Program-made: the position numbers and the translations under genes
In this document: piece after piece, positions 39,395-47,879 of the stretch
How positions within the stretch are numbered: position 1 is the first letter of the stretch
How the letters are laid out: every line of letters begins with the position of its first letter
The notes under the pieces: generated by a model
The model's input: only the letters and a program-made list of their open reading frames with translations
Told to the model about the DNA's origin: nothing
Databases searched by the model: none
NCBI GenBank assembly: GCA_000697475.1
Contig: JNEU01000896.1
Span: 1 to 64,000 of the forward strand
DNA: 64,000 bases
DNA from: Lichtheimia corymbifera B2541
Taxonomy: Eukaryota; Mucoromycota; Mucoromycetes; Mucorales; Lichtheimiaceae
Direction of reading: 5' to 3'

Positions 39395-42300
39395 ATGTCA
39401 ATATCAAGGAACCACCTGCAAGGCGGTAGCAGTAGTGGTGATATCTCCAGGTTATCCTCCAACAATCCATATAGAGATCTCGAAGCCCAGCAACACCCCA
39501 ACTTGGTCAACGATGCAACTCCCATTCAACAACCAGCTCCTTCTTCATCGCGTCCACCCAATGCATTCATGACATTTGCTGTCCGTGAGAGACCTAAGCC
39601 CGACGTCTCTGTGGTTCGACGCAACACAATCGCCACCAATCCAGTCCCGATCGAGGAATTCGATGCTATATTTGACGAACAACAACAACCACTGTATCGT
39701 CGACCTTCTCGAGCTGAATCGATCGCTTCATTAGCAGCCCATTCACAATATGACTCAAATGAGGAACAAGACTACTCGGATACAGCACGATTGACAGCCA
39801 ATATGGCAGGCGATGATCCTTCACCAACACCACAACAACAACCTCGACGCAACCAATCCCTTCGTAAAGTCGCTACCGTCTTACGCCGAGTCTCAAGGCG
39901 AGTTGTCAATAACAATACCATGGCTACCATTGATGAACAACCAATGATCCAAGAATCGATACCCATGACATCTACATCCAAAGATACAACATCTTCTTCT
40001 CCACCACCACCACCTCCTCCTCCAACTACACAAATCATGCCGCTCGTACAACGTCAACGCAAATCCAGAGCCATCATCCTCGCAGGCAAAAGTCTAGGCA
40101 TCTTTGGACCAGAGAATCCTCTTCGACGCATGTTTGCAAAGATGTTGCAATGGAGGTAAGATTGGGGATGCAGCGGAATAATGCAAGAGGTTTGGATAGC
40201 TAATTAAGGGGGGAATTGGGCTGTGCCTCTGTATTTTGTATTACATAGGTGGATGGAGACACTCATGATGCTGATCATTGCTGCCCATGGTATCGTATTA
40301 CTTGTCGTTGGATGGGGAAACAATCCTGAACCAGAACCACCAGCACATTGGGGTGAAACATGGGATCAGTTTGTATTGCTCGGCATCTTTTGTTTTTATA
40401 CGTAAGTACACACTGTGTGTGTGTGTGTGTGAGAGAGAGAGATCAAGGTTTATATACATGTGTTACTTACACTTTGTCAAAAAAGGCTGTCTGTCTCAAT
40501 ACGTATCATCACATTTGGTTTCCTATTCTCTCCAAAGCCTATCGAAGTGACCGATGAAGATGGATCTTTCAGATCGGTTATCCCACCTCTGGCATTTATG
40601 CGGCATTCTTGGAATCGTATCGATTTATTATCAGTCATGTGCTACTGGATTGATCTGGGTTTGACATGTGCTGGTCAAGTCATCATTGGTGATACAAGGC
40701 GAATCCTCATATTCAAGGCTCTCTCAGCTATGATCTTGTTACGGCTATTACTTATCACCAACAGCAATCGCGTTATTCTTCAAAGTCTCAAGAAAGCCGG
40801 TCCATTGCTTGTCAACGTATCCTCGTTTGTGCTCTTCTTTTTTGTGATCTTTGCGTAAGTCCAGTACAAATATGGTAATTTGATACAAGAAATTCACCAT
40901 ATCGGGTAGAATTGTCGGTGTACAAGCTTTCAAGGGATCATTTTTACGCCATTGTGTTTGGCACGGTATGCAATAGTCTTTATCTGAGCCATAAATCATT
41001 GACTAACTAATATCTATACAAAGATCCCGATGATCCAACCAATGTCCAAGAGCTGCAACAATATTGTGGAGGCTATATGGAGGATGGCGTGGAAAAACCA
41101 TATCTGCTCAAGGATGGTACCCCAGGTCCATGGTCAAAAGGTTTTATTTGTCAAGAAGGTTTAGTGTGTCAGGTAAGGATATACATTCGAAGGGGGGATG
41201 CCATAGATGTACTCATGCATAAGGATGACCTATAGGAAACCGAGAACCCATTTGGTGGCACCATCAGCTTTGACAACATTTTTTCATCCATGTTGATTAT
41301 TGTGATCATTGCTGGCAGTAAGTTATCACTTGGGAAAATCCAACCCTCTGGTATTTAAAATGCATGTACGACTTCCTTAGATCAAACGTGGACCGATCGA
41401 ATGTACGACATGATGGATGCCGAGTATTTCGTTGTCTCGCTCTATTTCACAGTCATTGTGATCATCATGAATTACTGGTTAATCAATCTCTTTGTCGCTG
41501 TCATCAACGAAATGTTCGCTAAAGTACGTGAAGATTCGCAACATTCGGCATTCACAGCGTCTCGAGGAAAACCGGTGTTGGCAGATGCGGCTGAAGGATG
41601 GTCTATCGGTCAAGGTGGCACTGGCAAAAGCGGGAGCAAATCCAGATTACTGGCCAACCTTGTCAGATACACAAAGCCATTTTGGGTGCTCTTGGTGGCG
41701 ATTGATTTGATTGTGATGGGCTTAAAGAACAACGATATGACTGACGAGCAGCTGCAGTTGATTGGTAAGTAGTGGTCATCCATTGTATGGCGTTTCATTG
41801 TTTCTCATACACATGTTGGGTGATTTTAGACACAGCCGAATTGATATTCTCGATTGCATTCTTGATTGAAATCATCCTTCGATTCTTTGCTGAATTCCCG
41901 CATTGGCGAAAGTTCTTCCATTCCAAGGCCAACAGAACGGATTTGCTTATTGCTGTAGTCACGTGCATCATTCGCATACCACCCATCCACGATAACCGCC
42001 CATTATATGCATGGCTCACGGGATTCCAGGTGCTGCGTATCTATCGTGTAGTGTTGAGTATTCCACGTATCAGGACACTCAGTGTAAGTGGACTAAAAAG
42101 TGTGGACTTTGAGAAATGAGGGCTAAATGGGTCGTTTTTATCTAGGTGCGTGTTCTCGGCAGTGCTTGGGGTTTGATCAACTTGGTCTTTTTCATCGTCC
42201 TTGCAACCATTCTCTGCGCAATAATGGTGAGATACATGCAATACCACTCACATTATGTTTGCTTACGATGTTGTTTTTTAGGCTTTCCAATTGTTCGAGG

Positions 42301-45300
42301 GGATGATGAACGATTCTGATGAGGAAATGCGATTCTTTTCGATCTACAACTCGTTTGTGGCATTGAATCAGGTACGATGATGCTAATGAACCATTATTGC
42401 ATTTGTGCTGATTTCATTGTAGCTCTTTTCAGGAGAAGATTGGACGACGGTTTTATACAATGCGATGGAATCGAGCGTGCCATCAAGGACAGCGGCAATT
42501 ACAGCTCTTTTTCTGGTCTTGTGGTTCTTGTGCTCCAACTGTAAGTAATGTCTCCATTCATAACTTGACATGGTATGATACTGATATATATCAATATCGG
42601 TATGTAGTCATTCTCGTCAATATGTTTATTGCTGTTCTTATGGAAAACTTTGAAACGGCTGAAGAAGAGAAGCGGATGCGACAAGTTGATCAATATGCGC
42701 GACAGCAAGAGCATGTCGAAAAGCATGATCCTGTCATCAGTCGCTGGAATATCTATCGCTACTTTCGTGCCAAGCCTAAAGGTGTCAATGTCGGCAACAT
42801 GCCTACCAACCTGGTACTTCCAGCGAAAAAGACCGTTATTAGGGACTTTATGAATGCAGATATGATCAAAGTAAGTGAAAGAGATAAAGCTGGTATATGC
42901 ATGTTTATTAACGCTATGCGGTTACTAGTCGCATGCTGATATGGAAAAGCAACCCGGCGTTTTGCAAGGAACACGACCTCGAGATACCAAACGATTTTCT
43001 GGTGTGCGCGGTTTTCTCGACAATTTGTTGCATCGTGGTGCCCATAATAGCACATCAGCATCCCCGAATGGAACCCGAAAGAGCTTTATGCTTGACGACC
43101 GGAATCCGCTTGACCAATTTCACACCTTTTATGATACGCGCAAATCAGCTGATATGGATCCCGCTTCAATTCGCCAAATATTGGAAGCACCACGTGATGC
43201 GACAGCGGCTGGAATAGCCGAAGCCGTGATGTTGGATGTGGAAGAACGTAGAGCACAGCGACAAGAATTTATTGCAGCCCACCCAACCTATGACAAGTCG
43301 TTGTATATTTTCAATCCAAGCAATCCTATACGTCGATGGTGTCAGATGATGGTGCCTCCTAGTCGTGGTGAACGATACTTTGGTGCACAACCATCGCTGG
43401 TTGCTAGCTGGATCTTTTTCGGCATCATCAGCTGTTCAGTGGTGACCACCGTGGTGCTGACAATATACAATTCACCCGTATATCAACTCAAAAATCGTGA
43501 TAATCCGGCACACTTGATGGTGTTCTCGCACATTGATTGGGCGTTTACCTTTATTTTCACGGCTGAATTCATCATCAAGGTTATTGCTGATGGCTTTCTC
43601 TTGGCACCCAATGCGTACCTGTTGAATGGATGGAACATCCTCGATTTATTTGTGCTCATCTCATTGTATCTCTCGAATTTCGGCAACTTTGCATCGTCCA
43701 CTGGTGTTGAGCGCGCATTTCGTGCATTCAAGGCATTGAGAGCACTACGTCTCATCAATTTGTTACGGCCTGCAAGAGAGATGTTTACCGTAATTCTCGT
43801 CAAAGGCTTACCACATATTATCGATGCTGGCATTCTTTGCATCTTTTTGATTATTCCCTTCGCGCTCTATGGTCAGAATCTCTTTCAAGGCTTGTTTTAT
43901 TTCTGTAACGATGATGGCGACGACATTACAACCAAATCCTTATGCGTCTACGAAGGAATGCTGGGTACCCAAGAACCAATGCCTGAGGATACTGAGATCT
44001 ATGCACCGCGTATATGGGACAATCCATATGTATACAGCTTTGACTCGTTTTGGAAAGGGCTGTTGGTGCTAGTCGAAATTGCAAGTGGTGAAGGTTGGAT
44101 CGATGTGCTCGAAGTCAGCATGAGCATCGTGGGCAAGGATATGTCACCTCAACAGGATGCAAGCCAGCTGAGTGGTATCTTTTTCATGGTTTACAATATT
44201 GCTGGTTCGATCATGGTCATTTCGCTCTTCCTCGGTGTTGTATTGGAGAACTTTTCAAGACGCAATGGCACAGCGTACATGACGGCGGATCAACGACGAT
44301 GGCTTGATTTGAAAAAGCTATTAAGCCAAATGCGTCCTGCTAAGCGGCCAAGAAAGATCCCAACGAGCTGGCTAAGGAAATGGTGCTTTGATGTGGTGGT
44401 TGATAAACGCAGCAAGTTTTACAAGTTCATGACAGGAGTTATCGTGCTCAATATCCTGTTCTTGTGCACCGAGTTTGATCAAGATGACGACATCCCTGGA
44501 TATAATACTGCTCGGGGTAAGGTGTTTGCAAACCCGTAGACAATGAAAGGTCGTATACTAACATGGTGTAAAACAGGTTATGTATTCTTGCTCTTTGTGG
44601 GAATATACTGGATCGAGATCATCATCAAGTTTCTTGGTCTTGGGTGGAACTCCTTTCGTCGCAATCTTTGGAATTTGTATGATTTGATTGTTGTCAGTGG
44701 AAGTACGGTTACCATCATCACCAGCTTTGGAGACCAAGAGCAGCAAGTAACCGTCGAAGCACAAAAGCTATTCATGACCGCCCTTTGTTTCAAACTTGTA
44801 CAGCGAAGCGATAGTCTAAATCAGCTTTTTACCATCATTGCGTAAGAAATTTCCAAACACGTGTCATTGTCGGCGAACTAATTTTGCATGAATGAATAGT
44901 GCGTCGGCATATCAAATCGTCAACGTGTTTGCGGTGTGGTTCATTGTCCTGACTACTTACTGTATCATGTTTATGGAGATCTTTGCATTGACCAAATATG
45001 GCACACAAGCAACTACCGAACATGTCAACTTTCGTTCTTATGCAAACACCATGATTTCTTTGGTGCGGTTTTCTACCGGGTAAGAATATGCGGATTCACT
45101 TGCCTTTTTAATGTGCTAATGAAATTGTTAGAGAGGCGTGGAATACAGTCATGCATGATTTTACGGTGGAGTCTCCCAATTGTGTCGTTTCTGACAACTA
45201 TCTTGATTCTGATTGTGGATCCAAAAGCTGGGCCTATTTCCTGTTTCTCAGCTTCAACATCATCTCCATGTATATCTTTACCGCCATCTTTGTCGCCGTG

Positions 45301-46540
45301 GTTGCCGACAACTTTTCCTACGTCTACCAAATCGCCTCCAACTTTTCACTTGTGAACCGTGACGAGATCAGAAAATATCCTTTTTTATATCGCATGTGCA
45401 TATGCAAGAATATGACGTCGCATTACTATTCATTCCTTAACTGAAACTCACGTATAAGAAGGCATGGGCAGATGTAGATATCAACCGGATCGGATACATT
45501 GAACCCAAGCAATATATTGGTTTTTGGCGAGTAAGTTGGATCATGAAATGGTTGACAAGGAAGGAAAAGGGAAACTAATTGATGATGCTAGAAACTAAGC
45601 GGTGCCTTTCGGATACGCATTTACGATCATGAATTCTCATACAAGTCGCTTCACGAGGAATGTGCTTTGGATGAAAGGTTGTTGGATCCATCAGAAAACC
45701 AGTACCAAGTACGCGTGGATTTGCGCAGGCTACGAGCAAGATTGAATGGCTTGGATAAGGCTGAAATTCACCAACGAAAACACGATCTTGATTGTTTATA
45801 CTGGGTAAGTCAGGCTCAATTACAGGATAGGGTGGGGATGTTAATGCATGATTGTAGGAGGCAGCATTATCCGAAGGGCCTAAGGGCGTCTCATTCAATG
45901 AGATGCTGTTGATGATTGCACGTCGCAAGTTGGTGATTCCGGAAAACGCCTTTTTGTATGTTCGATGTATGCGGAGTACCCCTTCATTTACTAACAGCTA
46001 TATTGTAGACTGGAAGAACTTTTGAATAACCAGAAGCGGGAAGAGGCTGTTGAGGCATTAATCAAGATTGATCGGGTCAAGGGCATGATTGAGACGATTG
46101 CGCTGCGTAAAAAGTTCCTAAAGCATCTTGAAAGCAAAAAGAAATCACGCGTTGGTAAGTATCTATATGGGCACATCCTTCCAATGAATGCTAAGTTGTA
46201 TCTTTTCGCAGCCGCACCACCAGCTATTCTCGTCAATCAACATCGCATATCACGGCCGCTTAATATGATGGATCTATATTCCGCTCCACCCACACCTGCT
46301 ACACCCACAGCTGATTTCTCAAGTCGCATGTATGATGATAATGCTTCAATGGGATCTGGTGGTGATTTGTAAGTGTGATCATCTGGAAAGCAAATGCATG
46401 TACCAATGTTTTGCTCTTTCATTAGGAGAAGCCCTACATTTGATAGAAGCTTGCAAGCTGGGCCGTACCATCCCCGTGATTCAGAAGCGACAGGGCGAAC
46501 AAGCGAATCCAACGAGCATGTTGTCTGGCACGGTAAGTGA
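39395..46540 (+). CDS. CCH1: Cch1-type voltage-gated calcium channel alpha subunit
   Basis: Twenty-two exons fit in phase and give 1947 residues: 39395-40155, 40249-40401, 40486-40854, 40910-40965, 41024-41172, 41236-41317, 41381-41764, 41830-42083, 42146-42226, 42282-42371, 42423-42540, 42608-42870, 42929-44516, 44577-44841, 44900-45079, 45132-45374, 45452-45530, 45592-45804, 45858-45955, 46009-46154, 46212-46368, 46426-46540. It carries four six-helix repeats and admits Ca2+ at the plasma membrane, with Mid1 as partner in yeast. Pore-position residues read N (AGNQTW), E (SGEDW), E (SGEGW), E (TGEAW). The cytosolic N-terminus (~250) and C-terminus are Ser/Pro-rich; an EF-hand-like DVDINRIGYIE follows repeat IV. 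The start is an internal ATG chosen because upstream sequence is low complexity. Confidence 0.93.
45375..45451 (+). other. U12-type AT-AC intron in CCH1
   Basis: No usable GT donor fits the conserved protein here. The intron starts ATATCCTT, contains TTCCTTAAC at 45433-45441 (the U12 branch consensus), and ends CTCAC. The branch adenosine at 45440 is 11 nt from the 3' end, within the 10-16 nt usual for U12 introns. Removing 45375-45451 joins AA to G to make a Lys codon and yields EIRKYKKAWADVDINRIGYI, the expected post-IVS6 sequence of Cch1-type channels. Length is 77 nt. Confidence 0.9.
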
Positions 46541-46871
46541 AGGAATGAGAAATAAGATGTAAGGATGTATATTGATTGTGGGAGATAGACATGCTGCAAA
46601 ACGAGCTTAAACAATAGAGCAACCCATACGATATACCCAAAATGTTCCACTTGTATCTTTTCTTTCCTTTGTAAATTAATATTATCTTCACAGCCCGCTG
46701 TGTATGTGATGCATTGAATGACCCAATACGAGAAAGTCTCTATGAAGTGAAGTTTGAATTGCAAGGGATAATAAGGGTGCGCGTTGTTTTGTTGATATTG
46801 CCATTGTATTGTTGTAGAAAATTGATTGAACAAATGTAGCTATAGGCTTCTGTATATAATCCTTTACTACT
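46541..46871. other. Convergent 3' regions of CCH1 and the SDR gene
   Basis: Short AT-rich interval without further coding potential. Confidence 0.4.
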
Positions 46872-47879
46872 TTAGGTGTTGATGACGGTACCACCGTTGG
46901 GGTGAACAACTTGGCCAGTCATGAAGGAGGACATATCCGAGCAAATAAAGACAAAGCAAGCTGCGATTTCGGCTGGTTGAGCAGGGCGCTTGAATGGAGG
47001 GAACGAGCCAAAGTTATGAATCTCTTCCTCTGTAAAGGTGTTGGGGATGAGTGGTGTCCAAACAGGACCAGGGGCAACGGCGTTAACACGGATGCGACGT
47101 GGGGCTAACTGTTGCGACAAGGCACGAGTGAAGGACACAATGGCACCCTTGGTGGAAGAGTAGTCCACAAGGTTATCCATACCACGATAAGCAGCAACCG
47201 AAGCAGTGTTAGCAATCACACCACCAGCCTTCATGTGCTTAAGTGCAAGCTTGGTAAGGAACATGGGACCAAATACTACAAGATACTTTTTTTGAGCCAA
47301 CAATGTCTCATCAAATGCTGACCACAACATACCATTTGTACGGAAAGTACGCTCGACAATGGAGGTATCAATGGTTTCAAATTCGAGATTCTTGGTCTGT
47401 TCAGCAGCGTTGTTGACGATATGAGTAATCTGACCAAACTTTTCCAAGTGCGAATCGATGATTTCTTGACAGTTCTTCTCATAACCAATGTCACGGGCGA
47501 TCAAATTGATTTTACATTTCGACTGCGCCTCAATGGTATCCTTGGTGTATTTGGCATCGGCATCTTCACGTTCATCACGATACACAATAGTGATACCAAG
47601 AGCACCTTCCAATGCAAAAAGTGTAGCGATGGCACGACCAATACCACTATCGGCACCAGTGATAATGATATACTTGCCATCAAGCTTGCCTGAACCCACA
47701 TAGGGGCGGAAGCATGGCTTGCCATCATTATCAAAACCTGGCAAATGTTGAGATACCGGTGGAGGCTTGAGCAAGGATGCAATGCCAGTCTTGGAGTAAC
47801 GAGCACGCTTGCGCATTTCATTGAACTCATAAACGTCTGAAGGGAGATCTTCATCGAATCCGAGAGTGTGCTTGGTCAT
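46872..47879 (-). CDS. Short-chain dehydrogenase/reductase of the YghA/YdaD-like group
   Basis: Two exons (47333-47879, 46872-47275) give 316 residues. The 57-nt intron lacks an in-frame stop, so the unspliced frame is also open; splicing gives FRTNVFGPMFLTK, the SDR helix-4/5 sequence, while the unspliced form has a 19-residue insert. NAD(P)-binding is shown by GADSGIGRAIA, NNAAEQ and the catalytic YSSTK (Tyr-x3-Lys) with the Ser of TASVAAYRG. An N-terminal ~50-residue extension before the Rossmann fold (PPVSQHLPG) is typical of the bacterial YghA/YdaD-type and plant/fungal relatives, often linked to glucose or aldehyde oxidation or stress. The real substrate cannot be read from sequence. 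Confidence 0.9.
   Translation of the reverse strand: MTKHTLGFDEDLPSDVYEFNEMRKRARYSKTGIASLLKPPPVSQHLPGFDNDGKPCFRPYVGSGKLDGKYIIITGADSGIGRAIATLFALEGALGITIVYRDEREDADAKYTKDTIEAQSKCKINLIARDIGYEKNCQEIIDSHLEKFGQITHIVNNAAEQTKNLEFETIDTSIVERTFRTNGMLWSAFDETLLAQKKYLVVFGPMFLTKLALKHMKAGGVIANTASVAAYRGMDNLVDYSSTKGAIVSFTRALSQQLAPRRIRVNAVAPGPVWTPLIPNTFTEEEIHNFGSFPPFKRPAQPAEIAACFVFICSDMSSFMTGQVVHPNGGTVINT

What the first reader, a model, noticed from the sequence alone, without database searches (positions are those of the whole stretch)
45375..45451. U12-type AT-AC intron in a fungal calcium-channel gene
Seen: ATATCCTT donor, TTCCTTAAC branch element, AC end, correct branch-to-end spacing, and reconstitution of conserved protein only by this splice; the whole 22-exon model stays in frame with it. 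Known: minor-spliceosome components have been reported in a few early-diverging fungi but are absent from most well-studied ascomycetes; animal voltage-gated Na+/Ca2+ channel genes also carry AT-AC introns. Inference: the organism retains a working minor spliceosome, and the intron might be an ancient one shared with animal channels.
Basis: partly seen in the sequence, partly recalled or inferred. Interest (0 to 1): 0.85.

Follow-up and report, generated by a model that had tools for sequence, protein, structure and literature searches.

The report
Minor-spliceosome intron in fungal calcium channel
A fungal calcium-channel gene carries a rare AT-AC intron of the kind removed by the minor spliceosome, and the same genome appears to hold the RNA parts of that machine and a sister channel gene with an ordinary intron at the very same spot.

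Summary
Confirmed. Window 45375-45451 is a 77-nt AT-AC intron with perfect U12-type signals in a 23-exon CCH1-like calcium-channel gene; the other 21 introns are GT-AG. The motif occurs once in the window, in 0 of 100 shuffles, and of 206 splices scored this one restores homology best. The genome holds U11, U6atac, U4atac (19-pair duplex with U6atac), a probable U12 and a probable U11-48K. Minor splicing in such fungi is already published. The animal link is not supported: the published shared animal site is in D1S1, this one follows IVS6; other animal minor introns were not mapped. New here: (1) a second channel gene in the genome has a GT-AG intron at the same codon and phase, pointing to a class switch, and its own AT-AC intron in domain II. 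(2) Of 25 strict minor-intron candidates, 23 start with AT. (3) Their branch site is mostly ATCCTTAAC, and the U12 candidate carries the matching change, GUAAGGAU. No RNA evidence was available.

The parts
45375..45451 (+). U12-type AT-AC intron (intron 16 of the channel gene), 77 nt, phase 2
45375..45382 (+). 5' splice site ATATCCTT; predicted to pair with pieces of the U6atac (-7.7 kcal/mol) and U11 (-6.2) candidates of the same genome
45433..45441 (+). Branch element TTCCTTAAC, the minority form in this genome (20 of 25 strict candidates have ATCCTTAAC, 3 TTCCTTAAC, 2 GTCCTTAAC)
45450..45451 (+). 3' splice site AC, 11 nt after the presumed branch A
39395..46619 (+). CCH1-like four-domain calcium-channel gene, 23 exons, 1954 aa (gene model by hand)
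   Evidence: homologues of a 491-aa stretch; Ion_trans in exon 13
45132..45374 (+). Exon 16, ends ...DEIRK (domain IV S6 and start of the cytosolic tail)
45452..45530 (+). Exon 17, begins ...YKKAWADVDINRIGYI
40156..40248 (+). Intron 1, GT-AG, phase 2, at the start of domain I S1. Lead only: it aligns to EWP/PFE of CaV2.1, in the D1S1 region where animals have an AT-AC intron, and one of 12 open-frame choices in the sister gene falls at the same aligned codon and phase

Best explanation
The 77-nt element is a genuine U12-type AT-AC intron of a CCH1-like calcium-channel gene in an early-diverging, Mucorales-like fungus (the placement is inferred from its closest named homologues). U11 and then U6atac would pair with AUAUCCUU, U12 with UUCCUUAAC, and U4atac would deliver U6atac. 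Removal joins codon 1679 (AA|G, phase 2) and restores the conserved stretch ...EIRK-YKKAWADVD... after domain IV S6. If the intron is kept, translation stops at a TGA just after the branch element, giving a channel without its cytosolic C-terminus. Shown by computation: motifs, gene model, snRNA loci, pairing potential, and a GT-AG intron at the same codon and phase in a sister gene of the same genome. Inferred: splicing by the minor spliceosome, and a U12-to-U2 class switch in the sister gene.
For: Perfect donor, branch and AC end; 1 hit in the window, 0 of 100 shuffles. Best of 206 splices for homology. The spliced protein aligns without a gap at the junction to animal CaV1.2 and to proteins from Ceratobasidium, Serendipita and Umbelopsis (the same three that scored). 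snRNAs in the same genome: U11 71.2 bits; U6atac 46.7; U4atac 49.0 against 40.2 for U4, with 19 continuous base pairs, G-U included, to U6atac; U12 27.6, full length. Probable U11-48K: CHHC finger and a collinear match to human 48K over residues 11-63 of a query I joined. Genome-wide TATCCTT-N28..58-TCCTTRAY: 71 matches against 9 for the reversed pattern. A Pfam domain over its cut-off runs across the rebuilt junction in 9 of 18 other candidates scanned. The sister channel gene has an intron at the same codon and phase. An annotated Choanephora cucurbitarum protein matches only from this junction on.
Against: No RNA evidence. The U12 candidate is well below Rfam's gathering score (27.6 against 53), was missed by the family search, and was picked by eye from 50 pattern matches whose reversed control had 82. 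U4atac is also below its score (49 against 53), and one search reported the locus as U4. 65K and 35K were not searched; CCDC84/CENATAC gave none in an uninformative search. The best match of the 48K finger by E-value is Gametocyte-specific factor 1, not 48K. This intron's TTCCTTAAC is predicted to pair slightly worse with the genome's own U12 than ATCCTTAAC does (-6.6 against -7.4 kcal/mol). Two follow-up homologue searches gave no further support.
Confidence: 0.95

Rival explanations
1. The intron has AT-AC ends but is removed by the major spliceosome, like the AT-AC introns of sodium-channel genes that need U2-type snRNAs.
For: Such introns exist in channel genes (PMC2831892, passages).
Against: Those introns have G at +5; this one has C at +5 and +6 and an exact U12 branch element, and minor snRNA candidates are in the genome.
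Confidence: 0.03
2. Another splice is used here (for example GT-AG at 45352-45458), or the intron is normally kept.
For: 45352-45458 GT-AG keeps an open frame.
Against: It scores 975 against 1089 and removes most of the VNRDEIRK segment; retention gives a TGA just after the branch element and scores 690.
Confidence: 0.02
3. The intron at the same place in the sister gene is an independent gain, not a class-switched copy of one ancestral intron.
For: The genes are distant (24-44% identity in the aligned same-domain pieces), and I saw no U12-like donor or branch element in the sister intron.
Against: Same codon, same phase 2, conserved residues on both sides. A second site, before IS1, may also be shared in phase 2, though that rests on one of 12 open-frame choices. 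Class switches of U12 introns are documented.
Confidence: 0.15

Closest known systems
U12-type introns of early-diverging fungi (Rhizopus oryzae, Phycomyces blakesleeanus, Rhizophagus irregularis; PMC2846911 and PMC10639083, passages)
   Same: Same donor and branch motifs; minor snRNAs reported there as here.
   Different: Phycomyces had 8-9 AT-AC against 8-12 GT-AG and Rhizopus 1 against 2-3; here 23 of 25 strict candidates start with AT. I saw no report of this channel intron in the listings and passages of my open-library searches (for example).
Minor spliceosome of Lichtheimia corymbifera (PMC4133162, passages)
   Same: Minor snRNAs of a Mucorales fungus; [quoted passage not shown]
   Different: U4atac was not detected there; here a locus with 19 continuous pairs to U6atac is present. 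I did not compare the structures it describes. In Apophysomyces genomes U4atac and U12 were reported missing (PMC5604411, passage). The identity of the genome here is not known to me.
AT-AC (U12) intron of animal Nav and Cav genes at D1S1 (PMC6259924, passages)
   Same: AT-AC U12-type intron in a four-domain cation-channel gene.
   Different: Different place: D1S1 in animals, after IVS6 here. The window gene has a GT-AG intron at the start of domain I S1 instead.
U12-to-U2 class-switched introns (U12DB clusters; PMC2831892, passages)
   Same: U12 and U2-type introns at the same codon and phase in related genes.
   Different: Here the pair lies in two sister genes of one fungal genome and involves the AT-AC subtype, rare in that survey (5 of 79 clusters with a single subtype).
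Blastocystis minor introns (PMC10639083, passages)
   Same: Set dominated by AT-AC (196 of 253, 77%).
   Different: A stramenopile. The share here (23 of 25) is not clearly higher (one-sided p 0.051).

Membership tests
U12-type intron | 5' splice site RTATCCTTT | tested here: met
   ATATCCTTT at 45375
U12-type intron | Branch element TTCCTTRAY a short way (about 10-15 nt, recalled) before the 3' end | tested here: met
   TTCCTTAAC at 45433-45441, 11 nt from the presumed branch A to the end
U12-type intron | Splice restores conserved coding sequence | tested here: met
   Best of 206 splices; no gap at the junction against CaV1.2
U12-type intron | Removed by the minor spliceosome in cells | not testable with these tools
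   No RNA data held
Functional minor spliceosome in this genome | U11 snRNA | tested here: met
   71.2 bits, gathering 39
Functional minor spliceosome in this genome | U6atac snRNA | tested here: met
   46.7 bits, gathering 33
Functional minor spliceosome in this genome | U4atac snRNA | tested here: met
   49 bits as U4atac (below gathering 53), 40.2 as U4 (gathering 46; reported as U4); met on the strength of 19 continuous pairs with U6atac
Functional minor spliceosome in this genome | U12 snRNA | tested here: inconclusive
   27.6 bits (gathering 53), full length with GAGUAAGG and an Sm-like site; not found by the family search
Functional minor spliceosome in this genome | U11/U12-specific proteins | tested here: inconclusive
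   Probable 48K; CCDC84 search uninformative; 65K and 35K not searched
Same intron as the AT-AC intron of animal Nav/Cav genes | Same position (D1S1) | tested here: not met
   After IVS6 here; D1S1 in animals. Positions of other animal minor introns could not be tested
CCH1-type fungal calcium channel | Four-domain ion-transport protein with fungal calcium-channel relatives | tested here: met
   Relatives named calcium channel protein in Rhizopus stolonifer and others; Ion_trans in exon 13; CaV, NALCN and Nav matches. The name CCH1 itself is by resemblance, recalled

The most novel reading that the evidence does not exclude
The common ancestor of the two channel genes carried a U12-type intron at this codon; it is still AT-AC in one copy and became an ordinary GT-AG intron in the other, in a lineage whose minor introns are almost all AT-AC and whose U12 snRNA and branch sites changed together (A-U to U-A). 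Furthermore, the GT-AG intron before domain I S1 may be the class-switched counterpart of the AT-AC intron of animal Nav and Cav genes.
Probability: 0.25. Interest if true: 0.75.

Novelty: new member of a known kind. Interest (0 to 1): 0.5.

Why it matters
Minor introns are few in the fungi that keep them, and their loss or class switch is mostly inferred across distant species. A single genome that holds an AT-AC intron and a GT-AG intron at the same codon of two sister genes lets the switch be studied in one cell. The AT-AC-dominated set and the matched change in U12 and branch site, if they hold, offer a natural compensatory experiment for U12-branch pairing. The gene may also be a warning for annotators: one public protein model from another Mucorales fungus matches only from this junction on.

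Tried and rejected
ATATCCTT is about four times commoner than its reversed control in the genome (1803 and 1747 against 438 and 455). That is base composition, not introns: in 294,570 sampled bases, both strands, 34 were seen against 30 expected from a Markov model.

U12 by the Rfam family search (42 of 1295 candidates scored, controls silent) and by two recalled patterns failed; cmscan found no U12 in the 8 loci or the 1. A third pattern gave 50 matches, fewer than its reversed control (82); I picked one by eye because of its stem-loop, and cmscan then scored it as U12. The other 49 were not scanned.

The C347 (TTATCCTT) and C3 (TCCTTGAT) candidates were dropped for lack of coding support. 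Of 26 TCCTTAAC matches, 25 were kept. Of the other 45 matches I had DNA for 24 and judged frames for two (C3, and a second C366 site with GTCCTTGAC that looks plausible but is not counted).

A search with the C-terminal 307 aa found no homologue at all, not even the Choanephora protein that it should reach, so it says little; a search with that protein found only itself. A text search for ATCCTTAAC listed papers that looked unrelated (20 of 218 shown). A PDB search with the sister channel's domain II piece gave nothing. The first gene-model script stopped on a mistyped motif.

Full report
WHAT WAS CHECKED. The finding claims a U12-type AT-AC intron at 45375-45451. The sequence there is exactly as described: ATATCCTTTTTT at the start, TTCCTTAAC at 45433-45441, AC at the end. 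The combined pattern has one match on both strands of the window and none in 100 dinucleotide-preserving shuffles. In the 35 Mb assembly that holds the window, the donor-plus-branch pattern has 3 matches, against 0 for the pattern read backwards.

THE GENE. I rebuilt the gene by hand from splice signals: 23 exons, 22 introns, 39395-46619, 1954 aa with one terminal stop. The introns other than number 16 are GT-AG (21 of 21). A 491-aa stretch (about residues 1361-1851) matches fungal calcium-channel proteins (39% identity over 99% of the query in Ceratobasidium; 63% over 43% in Rhizopus stolonifer) and animal CaV, NALCN and Nav chains. The gene is therefore a CCH1-like four-domain channel; the name CCH1 is by resemblance and recalled.

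THE SPLICE. I scored 206 donor-acceptor pairs around the site by the summed alignment of the spliced protein to three homologues. The AT-AC splice at 45375-45451 scored 1089, the next 1062 (also AT-AC), the best GT-AG 975, the best GC-AG 984, retention 690. The spliced protein shows no gap at the junction against CaV1.2 or against three fungal proteins; these three are the ones used for scoring, so the two tests are not independent. If the intron is kept, translation ends at a TGA just after the branch element. An annotated Choanephora cucurbitarum protein aligns from our residue 1680, the first whole residue after the junction, with a non-matching start of nine residues before it. This fits a gene model broken at a non-canonical intron; the residue just before the match is T, as an AC end in phase 2 would give, but that is one residue, and I have no DNA from that species. 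Two more homologue searches added nothing; the first did not even find the Choanephora protein.

THE MACHINE. Rfam models find U11 at C424:67034-67179 (71.2 bits, gathering 39) and U6atac at C9:40498-40635 (46.7 bits, gathering 33). A locus at C84:8239-8359 scores 49.0 as U4atac (gathering 53) and 40.2 as U4 (gathering 46); one search reported it as U4. Its first bases form 19 continuous base pairs, G-U included, with the genome's U6atac, and the whole predicted duplex has -39.7 kcal/mol, so I call it U4atac. U12 was not found by the family search (42 of 1295 candidates scored, controls silent) or by two patterns. A third pattern gave 50 matches against 82 for its reversed control; I chose one by eye, and cmscan aligned it over the full U12 model at 27.6 bits (gathering 53), E 0.0017 for 601 bases and all families. 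It carries AAUGAGUAAGGAUU, a stem-loop with GGGUGACACC and an Sm-like AAUUUUUU. I treat it as probable. A CHHC zinc finger at C416:7805-7873 could belong to several protein families (recalled); joined by me to the stretch before it, it matches human 48K collinearly over residues 11-63 (E 0.00035), while the best hit by E-value is Gametocyte-specific factor 1, over the finger and the few residues before it (1.4e-8). I call it a probable 48K.

OTHER MINOR INTRONS. The pattern TATCCTT-N28..58-TCCTTRAY has 71 matches, 9 for the reversed control. Of these, 26 have TCCTTAAC, and I had DNA for all 26 (listed). One (C347) has a T before TATCCTT and no coding support and was dropped. Of the remaining 25, the window's included, 23 begin with AT and 2 with GT. 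For the 23 AT introns the best-scoring end by codon usage is AC in 18 and AG in 5, the latter by 0.3 to 1.5 score units, so the ends of those five are open; the peptides use an AC end for all AT introns, chosen by me. I scanned 18 of the 24 candidates other than the window's with Pfam. In 9 a domain over its cut-off runs across the rebuilt junction (with AT: Ion_trans, Glyco_transf_22, CLP1_N, LSM12, RNB, DNAPKcs_CC3, Npa1, Prefoldin; with GT: Sec1), in 1 the domain starts just after it (CNH), and 8 had no hit over a cut-off. Six were not scanned. For comparison, about 26% of human minor introns and 77% of those of Blastocystis are AT-AC (PMC10639083, passages); Phycomyces had 8-9 AT-AC against 8-12 GT-AG (PMC2846911, passages). 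My pattern is strict, so the share is that of strong motifs only.

U12 AND BRANCH SITE. The base before TCCTTAAC is A in 20, T in 3 and G in 2 of the 25; with an assumed 28% A, p is about 1e-7. The Rfam consensus of U12 has GUAAGGAA; the candidate here has GUAAGGAU, which pairs with AUCCUUAAC, and by wobble with the two G cases. The window's intron is one of the three with T, the form of the published consensus (TTCCTTRAC). The predicted duplexes follow: own U12 with AUCCUUAAC -7.4, with UUCCUUAAC -6.6; with the consensus base -6.7 and -8.5 kcal/mol. This rests on one probable U12 gene.

THE SISTER GENE. One of the candidates led to a second four-domain channel gene, in C390:115500-123600 (L103, L104), 24-44% identical to the window gene in the aligned same-domain pieces. 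It has its own AT-AC intron in domain II between S2 and S3 (71 nt, L103 2989-3059), where the window gene has no intron. At the codon of the window's AT-AC intron it has a 60-nt intron in the same phase 2, but GTAAGT...GAATAG (L104 886-945), in which I saw no U12 element...DLR-N-FKHAWAEFD against ...EIR-K-YKKAWADVD. So one site carries a U12-type intron in one copy and a U2-type intron in the other. U12-to-U2 is the usual direction in the literature, though AT-AC introns are rare among such cases (5 of 79, PMC2831892, passages). The intron before domain I S1 may be shared too: one of 12 open-frame choices in the sister gene (GTACTA...ATACAG) gives the same aligned codon and phase 2 as the window gene's intron 1.

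ANIMAL CHANNELS. A review puts the AT-AC intron shared by animal Nav and Cav genes in D1S1 and says NALCN lacks it (PMC6259924, passages). The intron here is after IVS6, so it is not that one. [quoted passage not shown] I could not place these on the protein. Intron 1 of the window gene aligns to EWP/PFE of CaV2.1, in the D1S1 region; whether it matches the animal intron to the codon is untested. My memory of the animal exon border there is only a lead.

NOVELTY. Minor introns and minor snRNAs in Mucorales-type fungi are in print, and so are class switches and AT-AC-rich sets. I saw no report of this channel intron, of the same-site pair or of the U12-branch change in the listings of my ten searches or in the passages I read. 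These cover open-licence papers only, and I read passages, not whole texts; the 1999 paper on channel introns is not held, and the 2021 Physarum paper did not appear in my listings and was not looked up. The intron is a new member of a known kind; the same-site pair is the most useful part.

Noticed in passing
L103 2989-3059 (C390): AT-AC U12-type intron in domain II (S2-S3) of the sister channel gene; the window gene has no intron there.
   Followed up: yes
L104 886-945 (C390): GT-AG intron at the same codon and phase as the window's AT-AC intron.
   Followed up: yes
L085 195-346 (C369:247094-247245): U12 candidate with GUAAGGAU in place of the consensus GUAAGGAA, matching the ATCCTTAAC branch sites of the genome.
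   Followed up: partly
L093 317 and 769 (C366): Two AT-donor minor-intron candidates about 450 bases apart on one strand, perhaps in one gene; gene not identified.
   Followed up: no
L011 and L027; L087 and L088: Two pairs of loci with similar peptides around the junction in which both copies have an AT-donor candidate intron.
   Followed up: no
L097 (C396): AT-AC candidate inside an LSM12 domain; fly and human LSM12 have a U12 intron, GT-AG in the table (PMC2831892, table passage). Positions not compared.
   Followed up: no
window 46872-47879, minus strand: Single-exon short-chain dehydrogenase gene downstream of the channel gene.
   Followed up: partly
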